In this document: one piece after another, positions 19,516 through 31,659 of the stretch
Layout of the letters: each line of letters opens with the position of its first letter
Numbering within the stretch: the stretch's first letter is position 1
Origin: a virus
Length of the DNA: 37,558 nt
Strand: one strand, 5' to 3'
Virus record (IMG/VR): IMGVR_UViG_3300035670_000648
Location: 1-37,558 of that record
The notes under the pieces: generated by a model
What the model saw: only the letters and a program-made list of their open reading frames with translations
Database searches by the model: none
What the model was told of the DNA's origin: nothing
Position numbers and translations under genes: made by a program

Positions 19516-21402
19516 CTACCCATAGGTTTGTTGCCATTGCTCGGCAAGCATCTCGTCAAGATTTACTGTATATCTCTTTTGTGATTGTGCTCTAGTTGCC
19601 CAACGGTTATGGGCATACTTTTGAACATAAGAGTTTTGCTGCATAAATTCTCGGCATCTTAAGACACCAAACCACAAAGCCATCACACAGTCGGTTTTGC
19701 CTCTGGTCTCAGGCTTCCAGGTTAGTAGTTGTTGAACTAAAGCCTTAAGTCCTTCAGAGCCTTCAGTGCTAGGTAACTCCAAGATGTTGTTCTTCTGATG
19801 CTTTCCGTTGTTAACGGAGCCAAAGAGTGTAGACATTCCAGCGACTCCAAAGTTTGTGTCCCATTTGTTTTTGCCCGTGAAGTGAGCATTGAGTCTAACG
19901 CCATAAGTTGCCAGCCACTGCTGTAAGTCTGTGTCAAGTGAGTAGGCTTTCTGGTGTGCGTTAATTTCAACGCGGAGTTCTTGCGGTTTATACTTGTGAA
20001 CAAACTCCTCAATTGCCTGCCTAATCTTTTGTGGTGTTGGCTCTGCCATATTTAAACAGTCCAAAACGTAAATTTTTCCATCGTGCCTGTTATAGGTCAT
20101 AGCGACAAAAGCAGCATTGCCAGCCATAGCAGGGTCAAATCCCACAACGGTATAACCTTCAACCTGTGATGGATGTCCTGCAGCGCCAGGTCTCAAGGGA
20201 CCACGCTTTCTCATCCCATTAATAGAACCCTGAACAAGTTCAGCGGGAAAAATGGAATCTTCTAAAACATCTTCTTGCTGGTAGACCAACGCCCAGGTAG
20301 AGGGAGTTACCTCTCCTCGTCTGCGTTGTAGCGTCTTTCCATCCCATTTAGGATAGAGTCCGTCAGCATCTGGCGTATCGTCATCGCCATCCCAAGGAGT
20401 GTCACTTTTAGCCCAAAGCGTTTTCCAGTCTTCGGGTTTTTCAGCGTACTCAAGAACCGCAGGCATACCCATATAAGTAAAAGGAGACTTACCGCCTGAC
20501 CAATGCTTCGGGTCACGGAGTTCTTTGTAAAAGTCTGTCGGCGCAATTCTCGTCCCTACTACTAACAGTTTGCCATTCTTACCCAAACGGGTAATAACTT
20601 CTTTTTGGAGCCAGTTAATCTGCTTTTCATACTCGTGAGCGTTAGCCGTGGTTATGCAGTCATCCAGAATAATCAGGTCAGCACGGGCACCATAAATCTG
20701 TCCACCCATACCAAGGGCTTGGATGGTGGGGTCTTTCTCACTTGAGTTACGGGCATCGCCCCCAAGGTAAACGGTGTCAACTCGCCAGGTATCAGAGTCT
20801 TCTTTCCATCCCCCTTCTGGTCCAAATGTTGTCTGCAACTTTAACCAGCGCGGGTGGCTTAACCTTTGTTTGATTGCGTACACGAACTCGCGTGCTTTGA
20901 CAAGCGTTTTAGAAACTACGATGATTCTAACGTTGGGATTGAGAGCGATGCGGTAGGTAGAGTAGTTGACCGTAATCACCGTACTCTTAGCGTGCTCAGG
21001 TGGCACGTTTACAAGAAGGCGATTTGGGTCGCCCTTCTCATAAATCATACTTGGGTGGAGCCAACTAGGCTCTCTGCCCTCTAGCAAGTCAATCCAGTCC
21101 TGGTGGTGTGGGAACACCTTCTGGTCTAGGAACATCTGGCTAAACTGTGGAAAACTTATATCTTCCCTGGCTATGCCAAGGGCGGTCAAGGAACGCTCTT
21201 TAGAGTCTTCTTTTGCCTGGGCTAGGTCAGAGGCAAACTTAGGGTCTCTCATACACCAGATACGGATGGTGTCGGGTTGCTTGCCAACCTCAGCCATCGC
21301 CTTATGCGGTGCCCAACCCTCTGATACAAGGGCTATAACCTTAGCCTTTGCGGCTACCATAGCCTCTGTCTTGGGGTTAGTTTTACCCCTCTGAAAAGTC
21401 AC
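19516..21402 (-). CDS. Terminase large subunit with N-terminal HTH-like segment
   Basis: The packaging motor. From GTG at 21402 it is 628 residues. A Walker A variant PPEHAKST is at about 134-141, Walker B LIILDD at 243-248, and the nuclease domain opens with VVGFDPAMAG (Asp 423). Residues about 15-53 (AKVIALVSEGWAPHKAMAEV) look like a helix-turn-helix of the kind found in small terminases. The frame stays open back to a GTG at 21513. That start lies inside a hairpin and almost at the likely transcription start, so I prefer 21402 (AGG just before it); ATG at 21360 is also possible. No separate small subunit is visible. Confidence 0.9.
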   Translation of the reverse strand: MTFQRGKTNPKTEAMVAAKAKVIALVSEGWAPHKAMAEVGKQPDTIRIWCMRDPKFASDLAQAKEDSKERSLTALGIAREDISFPQFSQMFLDQKVFPHHQDWIDLLEGREPSWLHPSMIYEKGDPNRLLVNVPPEHAKSTVITVNYSTYRIALNPNVRIIVVSKTLVKAREFVYAIKQRLSHPRWLKLQTTFGPEGGWKEDSDTWRVDTVYLGGDARNSSEKDPTIQALGMGGQIYGARADLIILDDCITTANAHEYEKQINWLQKEVITRLGKNGKLLVVGTRIAPTDFYKELRDPKHWSGGKSPFTYMGMPAVLEYAEKPEDWKTLWAKSDTPWDGDDDTPDADGLYPKWDGKTLQRRRGEVTPSTWALVYQQEDVLEDSIFPAELVQGSINGMRKRGPLRPGAAGHPSQVEGYTVVGFDPAMAGNAAFVAMTYNRHDGKIYVLDCLNMAEPTPQKIRQAIEEFVHKYKPQELRVEINAHQKAYSLDTDLQQWLATYGVRLNAHFTGKNKWDTNFGVAGMSTLFGSVNNGKHQKNNILELPSTEGSEGLKALVQQLLTWKPETRGKTDCVMALWFGVLRCREFMQQNSYVQKYAHNRWATRAQSQKRYTVNLDEMLAEQWQQTYG

Positions 21403-21523
21403 AGACCTGTCCCATCTACATACAGTACTGATAGTTAGAACAGCCAGTAGTAACAGATAGTAGATACAGTCTGTACGCAAAGTCCGAAAGACTTTGCTAC
21501 TATCAGTGGGCACTTTGTGCCCC

Positions 21524-21963: not shown

Positions 21964-22119
21964 GTGACTAAGCAACTAGTGTATAAAGTCTATTGCCCTT
22001 GCGGGTTACAAGAACCAATCTATGTGCCGATGGCAAGCGATGAGTTCTTCGCAATAAGTGACTGCCCACTCTGCTTTTGTGGCAATGTCTACAAAATAAA
22101 GGCGGAAGTCAATGGCTAA
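21964..22119 (+). CDS. Tiny zinc-ribbon-like protein (51 aa)
   Basis: A GTG at 21964 with AGAAAGG five to six bases upstream gives 51 residues. The frame is open further upstream but lacks a ribosome-binding site and includes the hairpin region. CPCG near residue 11 and CPLCFC near residue 34 form a four-Cys zinc ribbon. It is the first gene of the early operon and overlaps the next by eight bases. A small zinc protein made first after infection could bind a host protein or nucleic acid; no specific function is known. Confidence 0.65.
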   Translation: MTKQLVYKVYCPCGLQEPIYVPMASDEFFAISDCPLCFCGNVYKIKAEVNG

Positions 22120-22555
22120 AGTTCAATACCTTCCACTTGATGTGGAAGCAATGCTACAGGCTAGGCAGTTCAGTGAGTCTGCCTGCGTAGCCTGCGTAGG
22201 GCTGACAGAATTATGTCCAGCCTGCCAAGACTTACGGGATACCCGTGATGCTGAGATTGCCCATCAGATAGTAGATGAGTCGCAAGACTTCTACTATCGT
22301 GGCTATGGTGACAACAAGCGTGCCGTAGCCAACGGTGGCGCAGTTTCAGAATACAAACCTATGTCAGTAATCCGTGACCTTCCATCAGGTCACGACTGGA
22401 CTGACCGTGAGGATGAGTTCTTAGAGCCTATCGCAATGCTAGTTGACAGGCTTTACGACTTAGAAACCTCAGTGACAATCACCCCAGCAGAGGTTATCTG
22501 CCAAGACTGCCATTTGGTCTACAACAAATGGTCTAACTGCCCCAACTGCAAGTAA
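22112..22555 (+). CDS. Early protein with two Cys-pair clusters
   Basis: A 147-residue protein. CVAC and CPAC (about residues 25-38) form one four-Cys site. CQDC and CPNC at the extreme C-terminus (ICQDCHLVYNKWSNCPNCK) form a second, rubredoxin-like ribbon. The middle is acidic and helical. Not recognised as a named family. It overlaps the preceding gene and is followed by a strong hairpin, so the first transcription unit may end here. Confidence 0.65.
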   Translation: MAKVQYLPLDVEAMLQARQFSESACVACVGLTELCPACQDLRDTRDAEIAHQIVDESQDFYYRGYGDNKRAVANGGAVSEYKPMSVIRDLPSGHDWTDREDEFLEPIAMLVDRLYDLETSVTITPAEVICQDCHLVYNKWSNCPNCK

Positions 22556-22561
22556 TCACAA

Positions 22562-22597
22562 GGGCGTGCCCCGTCACAAGTGACGGGGGCTTCGCCC
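22562..22597 (+). terminator. GC-rich hairpin before the SSB-like gene
   Basis: CCCCGTCAC (22569-22577) pairs perfectly with GTGACGGGG (22580-22588) around AA; GGGCG and CGCCC extend the base. There is no T-tract after it, so an attenuator, a processing site or an mRNA-stabilising 5' structure for the next gene is as likely as a terminator. Confidence 0.45.
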
Positions 22598-22622
22598 ACC
22601 AACTAACAAAAGGAGAAAGAAA

Positions 22623-22943
22623 GTGAACACAGTCAATTCATTTACCTTCAACAACGCAGAGTTGAAGTCAGTCAAAGATTACGGCAAAGTAATCAAAGGC
22701 ATAGTTCAGTCCCGACAGACTGAATACACACCAGATGGTCAGATTCGTAGCCGTTTCATCGCAAGCCGTCAGGTCACCATCACCGAGCCTCACCTAATTG
22801 AGCAAATTCGTCCAATGCTCGCCGATAATGACAAATTCATTGTCAACATCTCAGGCTATCTCACAACTACAGCCCGAGAAGACAAAGGGGTAACCAAGTG
22901 GTATGACAACCAAATCGTGACAGATTTGGAATTCCTCAAGTAA
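22623..22943 (+). CDS. SSB-like single-stranded DNA-binding protein
   Basis: A GTG start with AAAAGGAGAAAG upstream, 106 residues. The pattern of beta strands (GKVIKGIVQSRQTEYTPDGQ, DKFIVNISGYLTTT, DNQIVTDLEFLK) resembles an OB fold of the SSB type without an acidic tail. It would protect single-stranded DNA during replication and work with the ATPase, primase and nucleases encoded further down. It stands alone between a hairpin and a strong terminator, which suggests separate and high expression. A different OB-fold protein is possible. Confidence 0.55.
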   Translation: MNTVNSFTFNNAELKSVKDYGKVIKGIVQSRQTEYTPDGQIRSRFIASRQVTITEPHLIEQIRPMLADNDKFIVNISGYLTTTAREDKGVTKWYDNQIVTDLEFLK

Positions 22944-22950
22944 TCAATCC

Positions 22951-22991
22951 AGCAGGGGTAGGGGCTTCGGCTCCTGCCCCTGCTTTCCTTT
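22951..22991 (+). terminator. Strong rho-independent terminator
   Basis: A 15-base stem (22951-22965 with 22970-22984, two G-U or mismatch positions) capped by TTCG, then TTTCCTTTT. It directly follows the stop of the SSB-like gene. Confidence 0.85.
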
Positions 22992-23054
22992 TGCGGGGGC
23001 GGGGGTTCCCAAAACAGTCAGTAGCGAGTCAATCAGAATTGTTAGGAGACGCAG

Positions 23055-23219
23055 ATGTATTTAGATACAGGCACACTAGTCGCTATATGTATAGCACTAA
23101 TCAGCCAATTGATAATGATGGTAGTTCTATTCCGCTCTGCCTATCTATGGGAGCAAAGATACCACCACGCAGCAAATGTATTAAAAAGAGAAAGGATAGC
23201 CCGTGATATACGGTACTAG
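23055..23219 (+). CDS. Tiny membrane protein (54 aa)
   Basis: ATG at 23055 follows AGGAGA at good spacing. The 54 residues start MYLDTGTLVAICIALISQLI, with one membrane span at about residues 7-26, then a basic, Arg-rich cytoplasmic tail (LKRERIARDIRY). It overlaps the next gene by 17 bases. Predicted topology is N-out, C-in. It might act at the host membrane early in infection, for example in exclusion or membrane anchoring. Not recognised. Confidence 0.65.
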   Translation: MYLDTGTLVAICIALISQLIMMVVLFRSAYLWEQRYHHAANVLKRERIARDIRY

Positions 23220-23439
23220 ACGGTGCCCAGTCTGCCTCAAGCCTGGCTTTGTAGATGTCAAAGAGGATGAACTATTCACCTATCTCAGAGGTGAGTATGT
23301 AGGAACAGCATTTAAATCCTTGACTATCCCGCTAAGAGAGCAGATAATTAGCGGTGTCCATCCTGCTTGCTGGCAGGAAATGTGGGGACAAGAGCGAGTT
23401 AATGAGAACCAAGGAGACTATTCAGATGTCAACGACTGA
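23203..23439 (+). CDS. Small Cys-containing phage protein (78 aa)
   Basis: GTG at 23203 with AAAGGA upstream, 78 residues. RRCPVCLKPGFVDVKEDELF carries a CxxC near the N-terminus, and SGVHPACWQEMWG adds His and Cys that could complete a metal site. I recall similar proteins (CPxC, then GVHPxCW) in actinophage-like genomes with no known role. It overlaps both neighbours, so it is in the coupled early operon. Confidence 0.65.
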   Translation: MIYGTRRCPVCLKPGFVDVKEDELFTYLRGEYVGTAFKSLTIPLREQIISGVHPACWQEMWGQERVNENQGDYSDVND

Positions 23440-23560
23440 CAAATATTTCAAAGCCGAGTGCCAAAAGTGTGGCATCCCGCTAGTCATACCAGTAGCAGAC
23501 AGTAATGAGTGGAACTATTATCTCTGCCAAACCTGCGCCTTCGCAAAGGTCGGCGCATAA
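23426..23560 (+). CDS. Tiny zinc-ribbon protein (44 aa)
   Basis: ATG at 23426 with AAGGAG ten bases upstream; 44 residues. CQKC and CQTC are separated by 20 residues, a minimal four-Cys ribbon (ECQKCGIPLVIPVADSNEW). Its stop shares a base with the next ATG. Function unknown. Confidence 0.6.
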   Translation: MSTTDKYFKAECQKCGIPLVIPVADSNEWNYYLCQTCAFAKVGA

Positions 23561-23718
23561 TGACAATGGTATTTGCTACCAGCACAGTAGTCTGCGACAA
23601 CTGCGACTTGCTCACTATGAAGGCAGAGTATGACTACAACGCTCATTGCGTTACTTGGTATTGCAGTAACTGCCAACTAACTATTTATGACAACAACCTA
23701 GACACAGACAGGGAGTGA
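23560..23718 (+). CDS. Tiny zinc-ribbon protein (52 aa)
   Basis: ATG at 23560 overlaps the upstream stop (TAATG). The 52 residues carry CDNC and CSNC (VVCDNCDLLTMKAEYD, WYCSNCQLTIYDN), another four-Cys ribbon. The layout is similar to the preceding protein, so they may be paralogues. Function unknown. Confidence 0.6.
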   Translation: MTMVFATSTVVCDNCDLLTMKAEYDYNAHCVTWYCSNCQLTIYDNNLDTDRE

Positions 23719-23720
23719 CT

Positions 23721-23837
23721 ATGTTGCTTTGCTATCAGTGCCAGACACCAACAGATGAAAGCGAGTTAGTCTTTCATAAGACCAGAGACTACGAACCTTG
23801 GTGTGTAGATTGCCACGAAAGGAGCAGCAATGCGTGA
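23721..23837 (+). CDS. Micro zinc-ribbon protein (38 aa)
   Basis: ATG at 23721 after GGGAG; 38 residues with CYQC near the N-terminus (MLLCYQCQTPTDESELVF) and CVDCH near the C-terminus. This is about the smallest possible four-Cys ribbon. It overlaps the next start by eight bases. The regular Cys spacing supports a real gene. Confidence 0.55.
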   Translation: MLLCYQCQTPTDESELVFHKTRDYEPWCVDCHERSSNA

Positions 23838-23934
23838 GGTATATGCAGGACTAGTCAGAGTATTAGAACTACTCACCGAAGGAATAGAGCAAGGCTGGAT
23901 AGAGATAAAGAAGGAGACTAAAAATGAGAGATGA
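23830..23934 (+). CDS. Micro-protein (34 aa)
   Basis: ATG at 23830 is preceded by GGAGCAGCA and gives 34 residues (MREVYAGLVRVLELLTEGIE, then a Lys/Glu-rich tail). Probably one amphipathic helix. It overlaps its neighbours on both sides. No known family. Confidence 0.4.
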   Translation: MREVYAGLVRVLELLTEGIEQGWIEIKKETKNER

Positions 23935-24088
23935 ACAAATGCTGCTTAACCTAGCAGAAGTAGCCAAATGGTTAGACAGTTTAATAGTAGAAGTCAACCG
24001 TATTAATGAAGTAGTAGAAGACCTAATAGCCCAAGCACCAGTCTCAGTTGAGGCTTGGAATAAAGTAGGAGACCAGATATGGGGATGA
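23924..24088 (+). CDS. Small acidic helical protein (54 aa)
   Basis: ATG at 23924 with AAGGAG in range; 54 residues (MRDEQMLLNLAEVAKWLDSL). Heptad spacing of Leu, Ile and Val suggests a short coiled coil. Its stop overlaps the next start region (ATGA at 24085). No known family. Confidence 0.5.
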   Translation: MRDEQMLLNLAEVAKWLDSLIVEVNRINEVVEDLIAQAPVSVEAWNKVGDQIWG

Positions 24089-24180
24089 CAGGACAGTGCG
24101 AAGGCTGCAAGCGCAACACCCATCTGATTGATGGGGTGTTATGCGAAAGATGTGACATCCAATATAACAAAGGGGAGTAA
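24079..24180 (+). CDS. Micro zinc-ribbon protein (33 aa)
   Basis: ATG at 24079 (AGGAG seven bases before it) or at 24085 (ATGA overlap). CEGC and CERC are separated by 14 residues (GQCEGCKRNTHLIDGVLCER). It ends in GGGGAG, which serves as the ribosome-binding site of the next gene. It is the last of the run of tiny ribbons in this part of the early operon. Confidence 0.55.
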   Translation: MGMTGQCEGCKRNTHLIDGVLCERCDIQYNKGE

Positions 24181-24410: not shown

Positions 24411-24506
24411 ATGTATGAAGTTATCTATCCACACATCTCAACAACAATCACCTGGCTCTACCTCATTGGCATTGGGTATTGCCTATACAGATGGGCTACT
24501 AAATGA
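24411..24506 (+). CDS. Micro membrane protein (31 aa) coupled to a transglycosylase
   Basis: ATG at 24411 gives 31 residues (MYEVIYPHISTTITWLYLIG, then IGYCLYRWATK). One hydrophobic span covers about residues 11-26 with basic residues after it. Its stop overlaps the start of the secreted transglycosylase (ATGA at 24503). The pairing of a tiny membrane peptide with a wall-degrading enzyme recalls a pinholin or helper peptide, but the ribosome-binding site is weak and the role is inferred only. Confidence 0.4.
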   Translation: MYEVIYPHISTTITWLYLIGIGYCLYRWATK

Positions 24507-24934
24507 AGAACAAATTAGCAGCGCTTGTCAGTTGGCTTGTGACGCTTTCCTCAGCAGTATTTCCAGCGCAGTCGTCAGCAACAGCAGAAAACAACAAGTC
24601 AGAAGACAAGTCACCAGTCAAGAAACATCAGAAGGAAATACGCTGGACAAAATCCTTGAGCAAGTATTACGCCAAGGCTCTCATCTCAGCACAGTATGAA
24701 GACTGGAGTAAGGCTGAGTACAAAGCATTGCTTAAATTGTGGGGCAAAGAATCGGCGTGGGACCATACAGCAGATAACCCTAAGTCATCTGCCTTTGGTA
24801 TTCCACAGTTGTTAGGCTTAAAACCTACTACGCCAGCGCCCGAGCAGATTGCTCGGGGCTTGGCGTATATCAAACACCGATACGACAAACCATCAATTGC
24901 TTGGGCGCATTGGCGCAAGCACGGATGGTATTAG
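24503..24934 (+). CDS. Secreted lytic transglycosylase-like muralytic enzyme
   Basis: A 143-residue protein. Residues 1-27 are a signal peptide (KNK, hydrophobic core LAALVSWLVTLSSAVF, likely cleavage after Ala). A charged linker follows. Residues 65-143 resemble the small SLT/lysozyme-like domain of actinobacterial secreted proteins: LLKLWGKESAWDHTADN with the likely catalytic Glu83, SSAFGIPQLL, GLAYIKHRYDKPSIAWAHW and terminal HGWY. It would cleave peptidoglycan outside the membrane. It lies in the early block, far from the late lysis genes. The family call is good; the timing role is open. Confidence 0.75.
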   Translation: MKNKLAALVSWLVTLSSAVFPAQSSATAENNKSEDKSPVKKHQKEIRWTKSLSKYYAKALISAQYEDWSKAEYKALLKLWGKESAWDHTADNPKSSAFGIPQLLGLKPTTPAPEQIARGLAYIKHRYDKPSIAWAHWRKHGWY

Positions 24935-25110: not shown

Positions 25111-26100
25111 ATGACAACTATGACAGCAGTACCCAAAAAGAATCTATCTAATTGGGTCAAGTCTGGTGTTGCAGTAACAGCAACATCAGCCAGTGATGTA
25201 GCCAGACAAGCAGGGCTTGACTGGACAGTATCACTGCACGATATGACAGCGTCTTACACAATCCCAGGCGCAGGTCAGCCAATCTCTATACCAGTTCGCA
25301 ATAAGAAAGCAGTCATCAAGACAACACCATTCGGTAACGTAGACAACATCGGTGTAGTCGGCAACAGATATCAGGTCTTTCAGAACGGTGAGATATTCTC
25401 AGCGCTGGATAGCCTGATTGATTCAGGTGAAGCACGCTATGCAGCAGCAGGTGAGTATGACCACGGCGCAAAAGTATGGATGTTGCTTTCATTACCATAT
25501 GAAATCAATGTAGCCAATGACCCACACGCAGCATTTATCCTGGCTAAGACTAGCCACGATGGCAGCAGCGCAGTAGTTATCAAGCCAATCATTGAGCGTC
25601 TGTTCTGTGCCAATCAGATTAATAAAATCTATCGTGGCAAGAACAAGTTTACTTATACCTTGCGCCATACCAGTGGCAGCAAATTAGAAGTCAGCGAGAT
25701 AAGATATATCTTGGATATGACTTATCAAAACACACAGGAATACACTGCACTTGCTGGTAAACTGATGAGTAAAGAAGTTGAAAGGGAACACGCTCTTAAT
25801 TACTTTAAGAAAGTATTCCCGCTACCTACTACCATAGAGAACAAGCCATTGTCCTTGCTATCTACTGGTGAGAAGATGCAGTTAACCCGTGCCAATACAG
25901 CACGACACAAGGCTGCTAACATCTACTTCAACAGCGAGACACAAGAGAACATCAGAGGAACTGAGTTCGGTTTGTGGCAATCCATTGTTGAGTATGCCGA
26001 CCACGGCAAGCAGGATTCAGGTACTAAGACAGGCATCCGTGCTATGTCAGGTGGCTCTGATAACCTCAAGTTACGTGCATTAGAACTACTAACAGCATAA
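25111..26100 (+). CDS. DUF932-family protein
   Basis: A 329-residue protein of the phage/plasmid DUF932 type. Recognisable segments: VRNKKAVIKTTPFGNVDNIG, VGNRYQVFQNGEIFSALDSL, a GAKVWMLLSLP strand, then PIIERLFCANQINKIYRGKN and a helical C-terminal half with IRGTEFGLWQSIVEYADHGK. The family is widespread in phages and plasmids. Its biochemical function is not settled; roles in DNA metabolism have been proposed. It has its own AAAGGAG site behind a structured leader, which suggests separate control. Confidence 0.8.
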   Translation: MTTMTAVPKKNLSNWVKSGVAVTATSASDVARQAGLDWTVSLHDMTASYTIPGAGQPISIPVRNKKAVIKTTPFGNVDNIGVVGNRYQVFQNGEIFSALDSLIDSGEARYAAAGEYDHGAKVWMLLSLPYEINVANDPHAAFILAKTSHDGSSAVVIKPIIERLFCANQINKIYRGKNKFTYTLRHTSGSKLEVSEIRYILDMTYQNTQEYTALAGKLMSKEVEREHALNYFKKVFPLPTTIENKPLSLLSTGEKMQLTRANTARHKAANIYFNSETQENIRGTEFGLWQSIVEYADHGKQDSGTKTGIRAMSGGSDNLKLRALELLTA

Positions 26101-31499: not shown

Positions 31500-31659
31500 A
31501 TTTAGTTGCCCGATATGCAACGTAGTTGTAGAGCAGACTTTCTCAGTCTATTCAGACCACGCTATGTGGTGTGAGAAATGCAAGGTGCAGATGGATAAGC
31601 AGTTCAGTGCAGCACCAGTCCACTTTAAAGCCAAAGGCTTTTACAAAACAGGAGATTAA
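31486..31659 (+). CDS. FmdB-like zinc-ribbon protein (57 aa)
   Basis: A TTG at 31486 with GAGGAG eight bases upstream gives 57 residues starting MPTYEFSCPICNVVVEQTFS. This start, with CxxC and a second CEKC at residues 29-32, is typical of FmdB-type regulatory zinc ribbons found in bacteria and many phages. Role in phage unknown, possibly in transcription or protein binding. Next gene starts on its last base (TAAATG). Confidence 0.7.
   Translation: MPTYEFSCPICNVVVEQTFSVYSDHAMWCEKCKVQMDKQFSAAPVHFKAKGFYKTGD

What the first reader, a model, noticed from the sequence alone, without database searches (positions are those of the whole stretch)
21964..24180. Run of tiny four-Cys zinc-ribbon proteins in the first early genes
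Within 2.2 kb at the start of the early operon, at least six ORFs of 33-147 residues carry two CxxC pairs (21964, 22112, 23426, 23560, 23721, 24079), and 23203 has a Cys/His set. Several are too short for usual gene calling, but all have ribosome-binding sites and coupled overlaps. Genes at the head of an early operon often take over or disarm the host. A battery of minimal ribbons with different surfaces could be a set of protein-binding inhibitors, for example of RNA polymerase or defence proteins. The function is inference.
Basis: partly seen in the sequence, partly recalled or inferred. Interest (0 to 1): 0.62.

Follow-up and report, generated by a model that had tools for sequence, protein, structure and literature searches.

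The report
Tiny zinc-ribbon genes in phage cassette
A virus of freshwater Actinobacteria carries seven very small, cysteine-rich (probably zinc-binding) protein genes next to its DNA-replication genes; three are a conserved core kept in most relatives and four come and go at fixed spots, which fits a phage tool-kit for handling the host cell, although what each protein does is still unknown.

Summary
Five ORFs at 22112-24180 carry at least two CxxC pairs, 23203 carries CxxC...HxxC, and 21964 carries CxC...CxxCxC (so not two CxxC pairs). The 3.2-kb stretch has 5 such ORFs against 0.0015 expected, none antisense. Testable frames (a, b, d, e, g) are under purifying selection with nearly invariant Cys. 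The window is an IMG/VR record whose closest cultivated relatives are 'Ca. Planktophila' phages E7 and F5 (terminase about 61%). The 'battery' splits in two: b (22112), d (23203) and e (23426) are a syntenic core; a, f, g and j are accessory, f and j being clean single-gene insertions relative to L009. In E7/F5 the same position carries other tiny 4-Cys ORFs that differ between otherwise 96%-identical genomes, and E7 has an ArdA antirestriction gene among them. A strong, conserved terminator-like hairpin after 22943 splits the 'operon'. No tested known family (Lar, Com, Ogr/Delta, DksA/TraR, YacG) matches. d belongs to a broad uncharacterised phage family seen beside nucleotide and replication genes. 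Best reading: small, mostly acidic, zinc-stabilised protein-binding modules in a recombining early host-takeover/anti-defence cassette. Function is inferred, not shown.

The parts
21964..22119 (+). gene a, 51 aa, GTG start, CxC...CxxCxC; accessory
   Evidence: relatives only in L009/L086, L121 and weakly L120; pN/pS 0.33
22112..22555 (+). gene b, 147 aa, two N-terminal CxxC pairs and a C-terminal CxxC...CxxC ribbon; core
   Evidence: 31 distinct sequences, Cys nearly invariant; poor model
22562..22597 (+). stable hairpin between b and c
   Evidence: -25.8 kcal/mol for the 73-nt stretch
22623..22943 (+). gene c, 106 aa, no Cys; backbone gene, replaced by another small protein in some relatives
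   Evidence: SSB family not met
22951..22984 (+). terminator-like hairpin, conserved in position
   Evidence: 15 pairs; 13 of 15 relatives
23055..23219 (+). gene m, 54 aa, predicted single membrane segment (by eye); backbone
23203..23439 (+). gene d, 78 aa, CxxC...HxxC (CxxC...CxxC in distant relatives); core; phrog_20898-like
23426..23560 (+). gene e, 44 aa, CxxC...CxxC; core
   Evidence: C12, C15, C34, C37 invariant in 22 aligned
23560..23718 (+). gene f, 52 aa, CxxC...CxxC; accessory, inserted between e and g relative to L009
23721..23837 (+). gene g, 38 aa, CxxC...CxxC; accessory
   Evidence: resembles F5 4033
23830..23934 (+). gene h, 34 aa, no Cys; no relatives found
23924..24088 (+). 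gene i, 54 aa, no Cys; backbone
24079..24180 (+). gene j, 33 aa, CxxC...CxxC; accessory, inserted between i and k relative to L009
24183..24407 (+). gene k, 74 aa, no Cys; accessory
   Evidence: L009/L086 only
24411..24506 (+). gene l, 31 aa, predicted membrane segment; backbone; low synonymous change
24503..24934 (+). gene n, transglycosylase-like; end of the cassette; backbone
25111..26100 (+). DUF932 gene used as anchor for relatives

Best explanation
This is a recombining gene cassette at the head of the rightward (replication-side) gene cluster of a phage of freshwater Actinobacteria. It has a conserved backbone (b-c-m-d-e-i-l-n) that includes three probable zinc proteins, and hot spots (upstream of b, between e and i, between i and l) where single tiny genes, several of them 4-Cys ribbons, are gained and lost. 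Shown: the genes, the retained Cys, the fixed order, the single-gene insertions, and the swapping of equivalent genes in cultivated sister phages next to an antirestriction gene. Inferred: each protein is a small zinc-stabilised scaffold, mostly acidic, that binds a host protein early in infection. The accessory ones (a, f, g, j) most likely counter strain-specific defence or adjust host enzymes; the core ones (b, d, e) more likely serve a constant step such as redirecting host transcription or replication.
For: Coding and Cys retention. Backbone order and variable slots. f and j as clean insertions. Sister phages E7/F5: WhiB onward about 96% identical DNA, cassette proteins 40-93% identical, tiny Cys ORFs 4033, 4587 and 5373 of F5 without a hit in E7, and ArdA (PF07275, 9.7e-9) in E7. 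Acidic charge. Position divergent from terminase and ahead of exonuclease, DnaB helicase, primase, sigma and WhiB genes. Precedents for small zinc proteins that bind host enzymes: TraR/lambda Orf73 on RNA polymerase (PMC9239242; that TraR has a C4 zinc finger is my own knowledge) and YacG on gyrase (PMC10886550). Host: PMC10202952 and terminase match.
Against: No target, no expression data and no zinc measurement. No recognised inhibitor family matches. No PDB fold match for d; the b model is poor. Core b/d/e do not behave like arms-race genes. Gain or loss of a small gene can also be neutral. Early timing is inferred from position only, and a conserved terminator-like hairpin after c means genes m onward may not be co-transcribed with a-c.
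Confidence: 0.5

Rival explanations
1. The zinc proteins are phage-internal regulators or parts: nucleic-acid-binding or RNA-polymerase-associated factors that time phage transcription or translation (as Com or Ogr/Delta do), or cofactors of the phage replication proteins encoded next door. The variable members are side branches of that network.
For: b, d and e are conserved in order and sequence across the clade. d homologues lie next to replication/nucleotide genes in Youna2 and DLP_6. A conserved terminator-like hairpin after c and a hairpin between b and c suggest regulated transcription inside the cassette.
Against: No match to Com or Ogr/Delta. b, d, f and g are acidic. Accessory ribbons are gained and lost, which a required regulator would not be.
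Confidence: 0.3
2. The cluster is mostly small genes of little individual importance: short frames that entered by illegitimate recombination and persist because they cost little, with the Cys pattern reflecting that tiny proteins need a metal to fold rather than a shared role.
For: f and j (and h) have no relatives. Single tiny two-CxxC ORFs also occur in stretches of unrelated phages. The different ribbons do not show clear common descent.
Against: Purifying selection and invariant Cys in a, b, d, e, g. Co-location with ArdA in E7. Density far above chance and the same region used in sister phages.
Confidence: 0.15
3. Chance or artefact: the Cys patterns arise from mis-called frames in a region without real genes.
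For: Several ORFs are short and below usual gene-calling limits (one search misses 21964, 23721 and 24079).
Against: Expected number 0.0015, none antisense, frames and Cys kept in relatives.
Confidence: 0.02

Closest known systems
Planktophila phages LanE43AprE7 and LanE43AprF5 (PMC10202952; OX376640, OX376641)
   Same: Related terminase (61-62%); an early-side stretch of tiny genes with several two-CxxC ORFs at the same position; gene content swapped between the two
   Different: The tiny proteins are mostly not detectably homologous to those in the window (only g resembles F5 4033, and e weakly F5 5579); they carry ArdA (E7) and a staphylococcal-nuclease-like gene instead
phrog_20898 and the uncharacterised phage family with the motif ISGxCxxCF/W (e.g. 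Youna2 UKM63098, DLP_6 AAY80_048)
   Same: Gene d shares sequence and predicted fold
   Different: In the window clade the second pair is HxxC instead of CxxC; function unknown everywhere
TraR / lambda Orf73 (DksA family)
   Same: Small mobile-element protein (TraR 73 aa) that reprograms host transcription by binding RNA polymerase (PMC9239242)
   Different: No match to PF01258
YacG
   Same: 65-aa zinc-finger protein that blocks DNA gyrase (PMC10886550)
   Different: No match to PF03884; host-encoded
Lar / ArdA antirestriction genes
   Same: Phage or mobile-element genes against restriction; ArdA occupies the same cassette in E7
   Different: No window protein matches Lar or ArdA

Membership tests
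phrog_20898-type phage protein (gene d) | profile match and shared predicted fold | tested here: met
   20/20 members match, best 1.1e-8, the window copy 5.5e-4; viral fold matches from E 1.8e-4
DksA/TraR | match to PF01258 zinc finger | tested here: not met
   no match in the window at E<=1
YacG gyrase inhibitor | match to PF03884 | tested here: not met
   no match at E<=1
Mu Com | match to PF10122 | tested here: not met
   no match at E<=1
P2/P4 Ogr/Delta activators | match to PF04606 | tested here: not met
   no match at E<=1
Lar restriction alleviation | match to PF14354 | tested here: not met
   only a non-significant hit of e to phrog_6422 (E 0.14)
Zinc ribbon / treble-clef proteins in general | two pairs of zinc ligands retained across relatives | tested here: met
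   b, d, e, g:
Zinc ribbon / treble-clef proteins in general | bound zinc | not testable with these tools
   needs protein chemistry
Early host-takeover / anti-defence cassette | variable gene content at a fixed position, with a known anti-defence gene among the alternatives | tested here: met
   (the anti-defence gene is in the sister phage E7, not in the window)
Early host-takeover / anti-defence cassette | early transcription and effect on host or defence | not testable with these tools
   no expression or functional data held
SSB (gene c) | match to PF00436 | tested here: not met
   also no solved relative

The most novel reading that the evidence does not exclude
Phages of abundant freshwater Actinobacteria keep an exchangeable set of minimal (33-60 aa) zinc ribbons as a modular inhibitor platform, in which the four-Cys core is held constant while the rest of the surface and the neighbouring genes are swapped to hit different host or defence proteins.
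Probability: 0.2. Interest if true: 0.75.

Novelty: new variant of a known kind. Interest (0 to 1): 0.42.

Why it matters
Variable early cassettes of small genes are where phages often keep host-takeover and anti-defence tools, but genes this short are easily missed by annotation. Here the cassette is defined in dozens of relatives, and a cultivated phage-host pair ('Ca. Planktophila' LanE-43 with E7 and F5) has an equivalent region, so the role of minimal zinc proteins can be tested directly. It would also give a first handle on how phages overcome one of the most abundant freshwater bacterial groups.

Tried and rejected
Search for relatives of f in viral contigs: none; j too short for the tool. 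PDB by profile for b, c, e: nothing significant. AlphaFold model of b too poor to use. PADLOC and NCBIfam: nothing useful. The idea that c is a single-strand-binding protein rested on eye only and failed the Pfam test. The idea that ORF 24415-24699 is a real overlapping gene across n was weakened: synonymous change in n is not reduced there. Common origin of the different ribbons by duplication: hhalign gives only g with F5 4033, and j or e with an L120 ORF, as suggestive; 30-50-aa Cys-spaced proteins give unreliable scores, so nothing is concluded. In one search the lines 'ABSENT in E7' and the n-gene rates came from faulty script options; one search replaces them (the charge figures stand). 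The metagenomic G2 phage record KU886271 is not in the collection and the paper describing it is not held.

Full report
What the window is. The window is a 37,558-base IMG/VR virus record. Structural genes run leftward from terminase (19516-21513) and a rightward block starts near 21964. That block contains a DUF932 gene (25111), an exonuclease (26673), a DnaB-like helicase (27909), a resolvase (28893), a primase (29224), a sigma-like factor (30617) and a WhiB-like gene (31793). The terminase is 61-62% identical to those of two cultivated phages of 'Ca. Planktophila', LanE43AprF5 and LanE43AprE7 (PMC10202952). A freshwater actinobacterial host is therefore likely; this is inference from relatedness plus the WhiB-like gene.

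The observation. Seven small Cys-rich ORFs are present as described, with one correction: 21964 has C-x-C...C-xx-C-x-C, not two CxxC pairs. The density is far above chance: 5 SD-preceded ORFs with two CxxC pairs in 3.2 kb, against a mean of 0.0015 in simulated sequence, none on the other strand of the whole window and one elsewhere. In 27 non-redundant relatives the same stretch holds 0-3 such ORFs in sense, none in antisense, and only one turned up in all the 3.6-kb stretches downstream. The window has the highest count.

Are they genes? A search with the DUF932 protein gave 78 relatives; a search with the gene d alignment gave 79 loci, many on the same contigs. Genes b, d, e and g keep their Cys almost without exception. 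For a, b, d, e and g non-synonymous change is about a third of synonymous change (synonymous change is near saturation and a and g rest on one pair each). These very short frames are therefore very probably translated and selected. f, h and j have no relatives in the set and rest on SD sequence, tight junctions and, for f and j, the improbable Cys pattern.

Core and accessory. Anchored gene maps show a backbone b-c-m-d-e-i-l-n in most close relatives, with variable genes upstream of b, between e and i, and between i and l. b, d and e are therefore conserved, not shuffled. a, g and k occur in few relatives. f and j are single-gene insertions: in L009, e is followed directly by g, and i directly by k, with the junction sequence otherwise kept. 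Other relatives have other small Cys-rich genes at these spots (for example L010 and L026 upstream of b; L120 between e and i). Gene c is replaced by a different small protein in L020, L026, L030 and L034.

The sister phages. F5 and E7 are about 96% identical from the WhiB gene onward but diverge in the corresponding stretch. WhiB, FmdB-like and the next gene are 96-100% identical in protein. The cassette proteins are 40-93% identical or missing, and three Cys-containing tiny ORFs of F5 (4033, 4587, 5373) have no hit in the E7 region. One shared 4-Cys ORF (F5 5579) is 71% identical, with all four Cys kept and the residues around the first pair changed. E7 carries an ArdA antirestriction gene (PF07275, E 9.7e-9, above the cut-off) where F5 has two other ORFs. 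The authors of PMC10202952 also reported an ArdA homologue in E7. This is the best evidence that the position is an anti-defence/host-takeover slot.

Transcription layout. A strong terminator-like hairpin (22951-22984) follows c, and 13 of 15 relatives inspected have a strong hairpin at the same place. A second stable hairpin lies between b and c. Sigma-70-like promoter matches do not exceed chance.

What the proteins are. None of the seven matches a Pfam, NCBIfam or PADLOC family at its cut-off. Direct tests for Lar, TraR/DksA, YacG, Com and Ogr/Delta are negative. d matches phrog_20898 in all 20 members, is modelled with good confidence over its first 60 residues as a beta-hairpin plus helices, matches predicted structures of other phage proteins of unknown function and nothing in the PDB. 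Its relatives in other phages lie near ribonucleotide reductase/dUTPase or in the DNA polymerase/clamp-loader/UvsX region. Gene b could not be modelled. Net charges are negative for b, d, f and g and near zero for e, j and a, which argues against general nucleic-acid binding.

Mechanism. Most likely these are minimal zinc-held scaffolds that present a binding surface to host proteins early in infection. The accessory set would be exchanged as host strains change; the core set would act on something invariant. Small proteins acting on RNA polymerase (TraR/lambda Orf73, PMC9239242) and on gyrase (YacG, a zinc-finger protein, PMC10886550) show that this size is enough; this is analogy, not membership. 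Steps shown: genes, Cys retention, order, insertion/loss, co-location with ArdA in a sister. Steps inferred: zinc binding, early timing, protein targets, anti-defence role.

Novelty. Variable early cassettes are a known kind. A cassette this rich in 4-Cys mini-proteins, with three uncharacterised conserved families at its core, is a new variant. Single tiny two-CxxC ORFs also occur in stretches of other phages checked as a rough comparison (0-2 per strand in 6.5-26 kb), so the individual type of protein is ordinary; the cluster is not.

Noticed in passing
24411-24506 (and overlapping ORF 24415-24699): The 31-aa gene l has unusually little synonymous change (pS 0.18 against about 0.57 in the adjacent gene n) and flat conservation at all codon positions; a second frame is open across it in many relatives. 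An overlapping coding or regulatory element is likely inside l.
   Followed up: partly
22951-22984 and 22562-22597: Two strong hairpins, after c and between b and c; the first is conserved in position in most relatives though its sequence differs.
   Followed up: partly
24503-24934: A transglycosylase-like (lysis-type) gene lies at the end of this early-side cassette and is found in nearly all relatives, including F5 and E7 (48% over 77 residues).
   Followed up: partly
22623-22943; L026:3597-3902, L030:2350-2658: Gene c is exchanged in some relatives for a small protein without detected similarity at the same place; in L062 and L070 the order of b and c is reversed.
   Followed up: no
31564-31659: A 31-aa ORF looks like a shortened FmdB-type zinc ribbon (a 57-aa form exists in F5 at L163:6955-7128).
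   Followed up: no
L016:362-622, L026:2754-3023, L055:1832-2086: A DUF4326 gene sits upstream of b in several relatives, as an alternative to gene a.
   Followed up: partly
L011:4359-4832, L014:2347-2820, L140:4767-5240: A 157-aa gene beginning MGLDMYL is inserted between i and l in several relatives (phrog_7971 match, function unknown).
   Followed up: no
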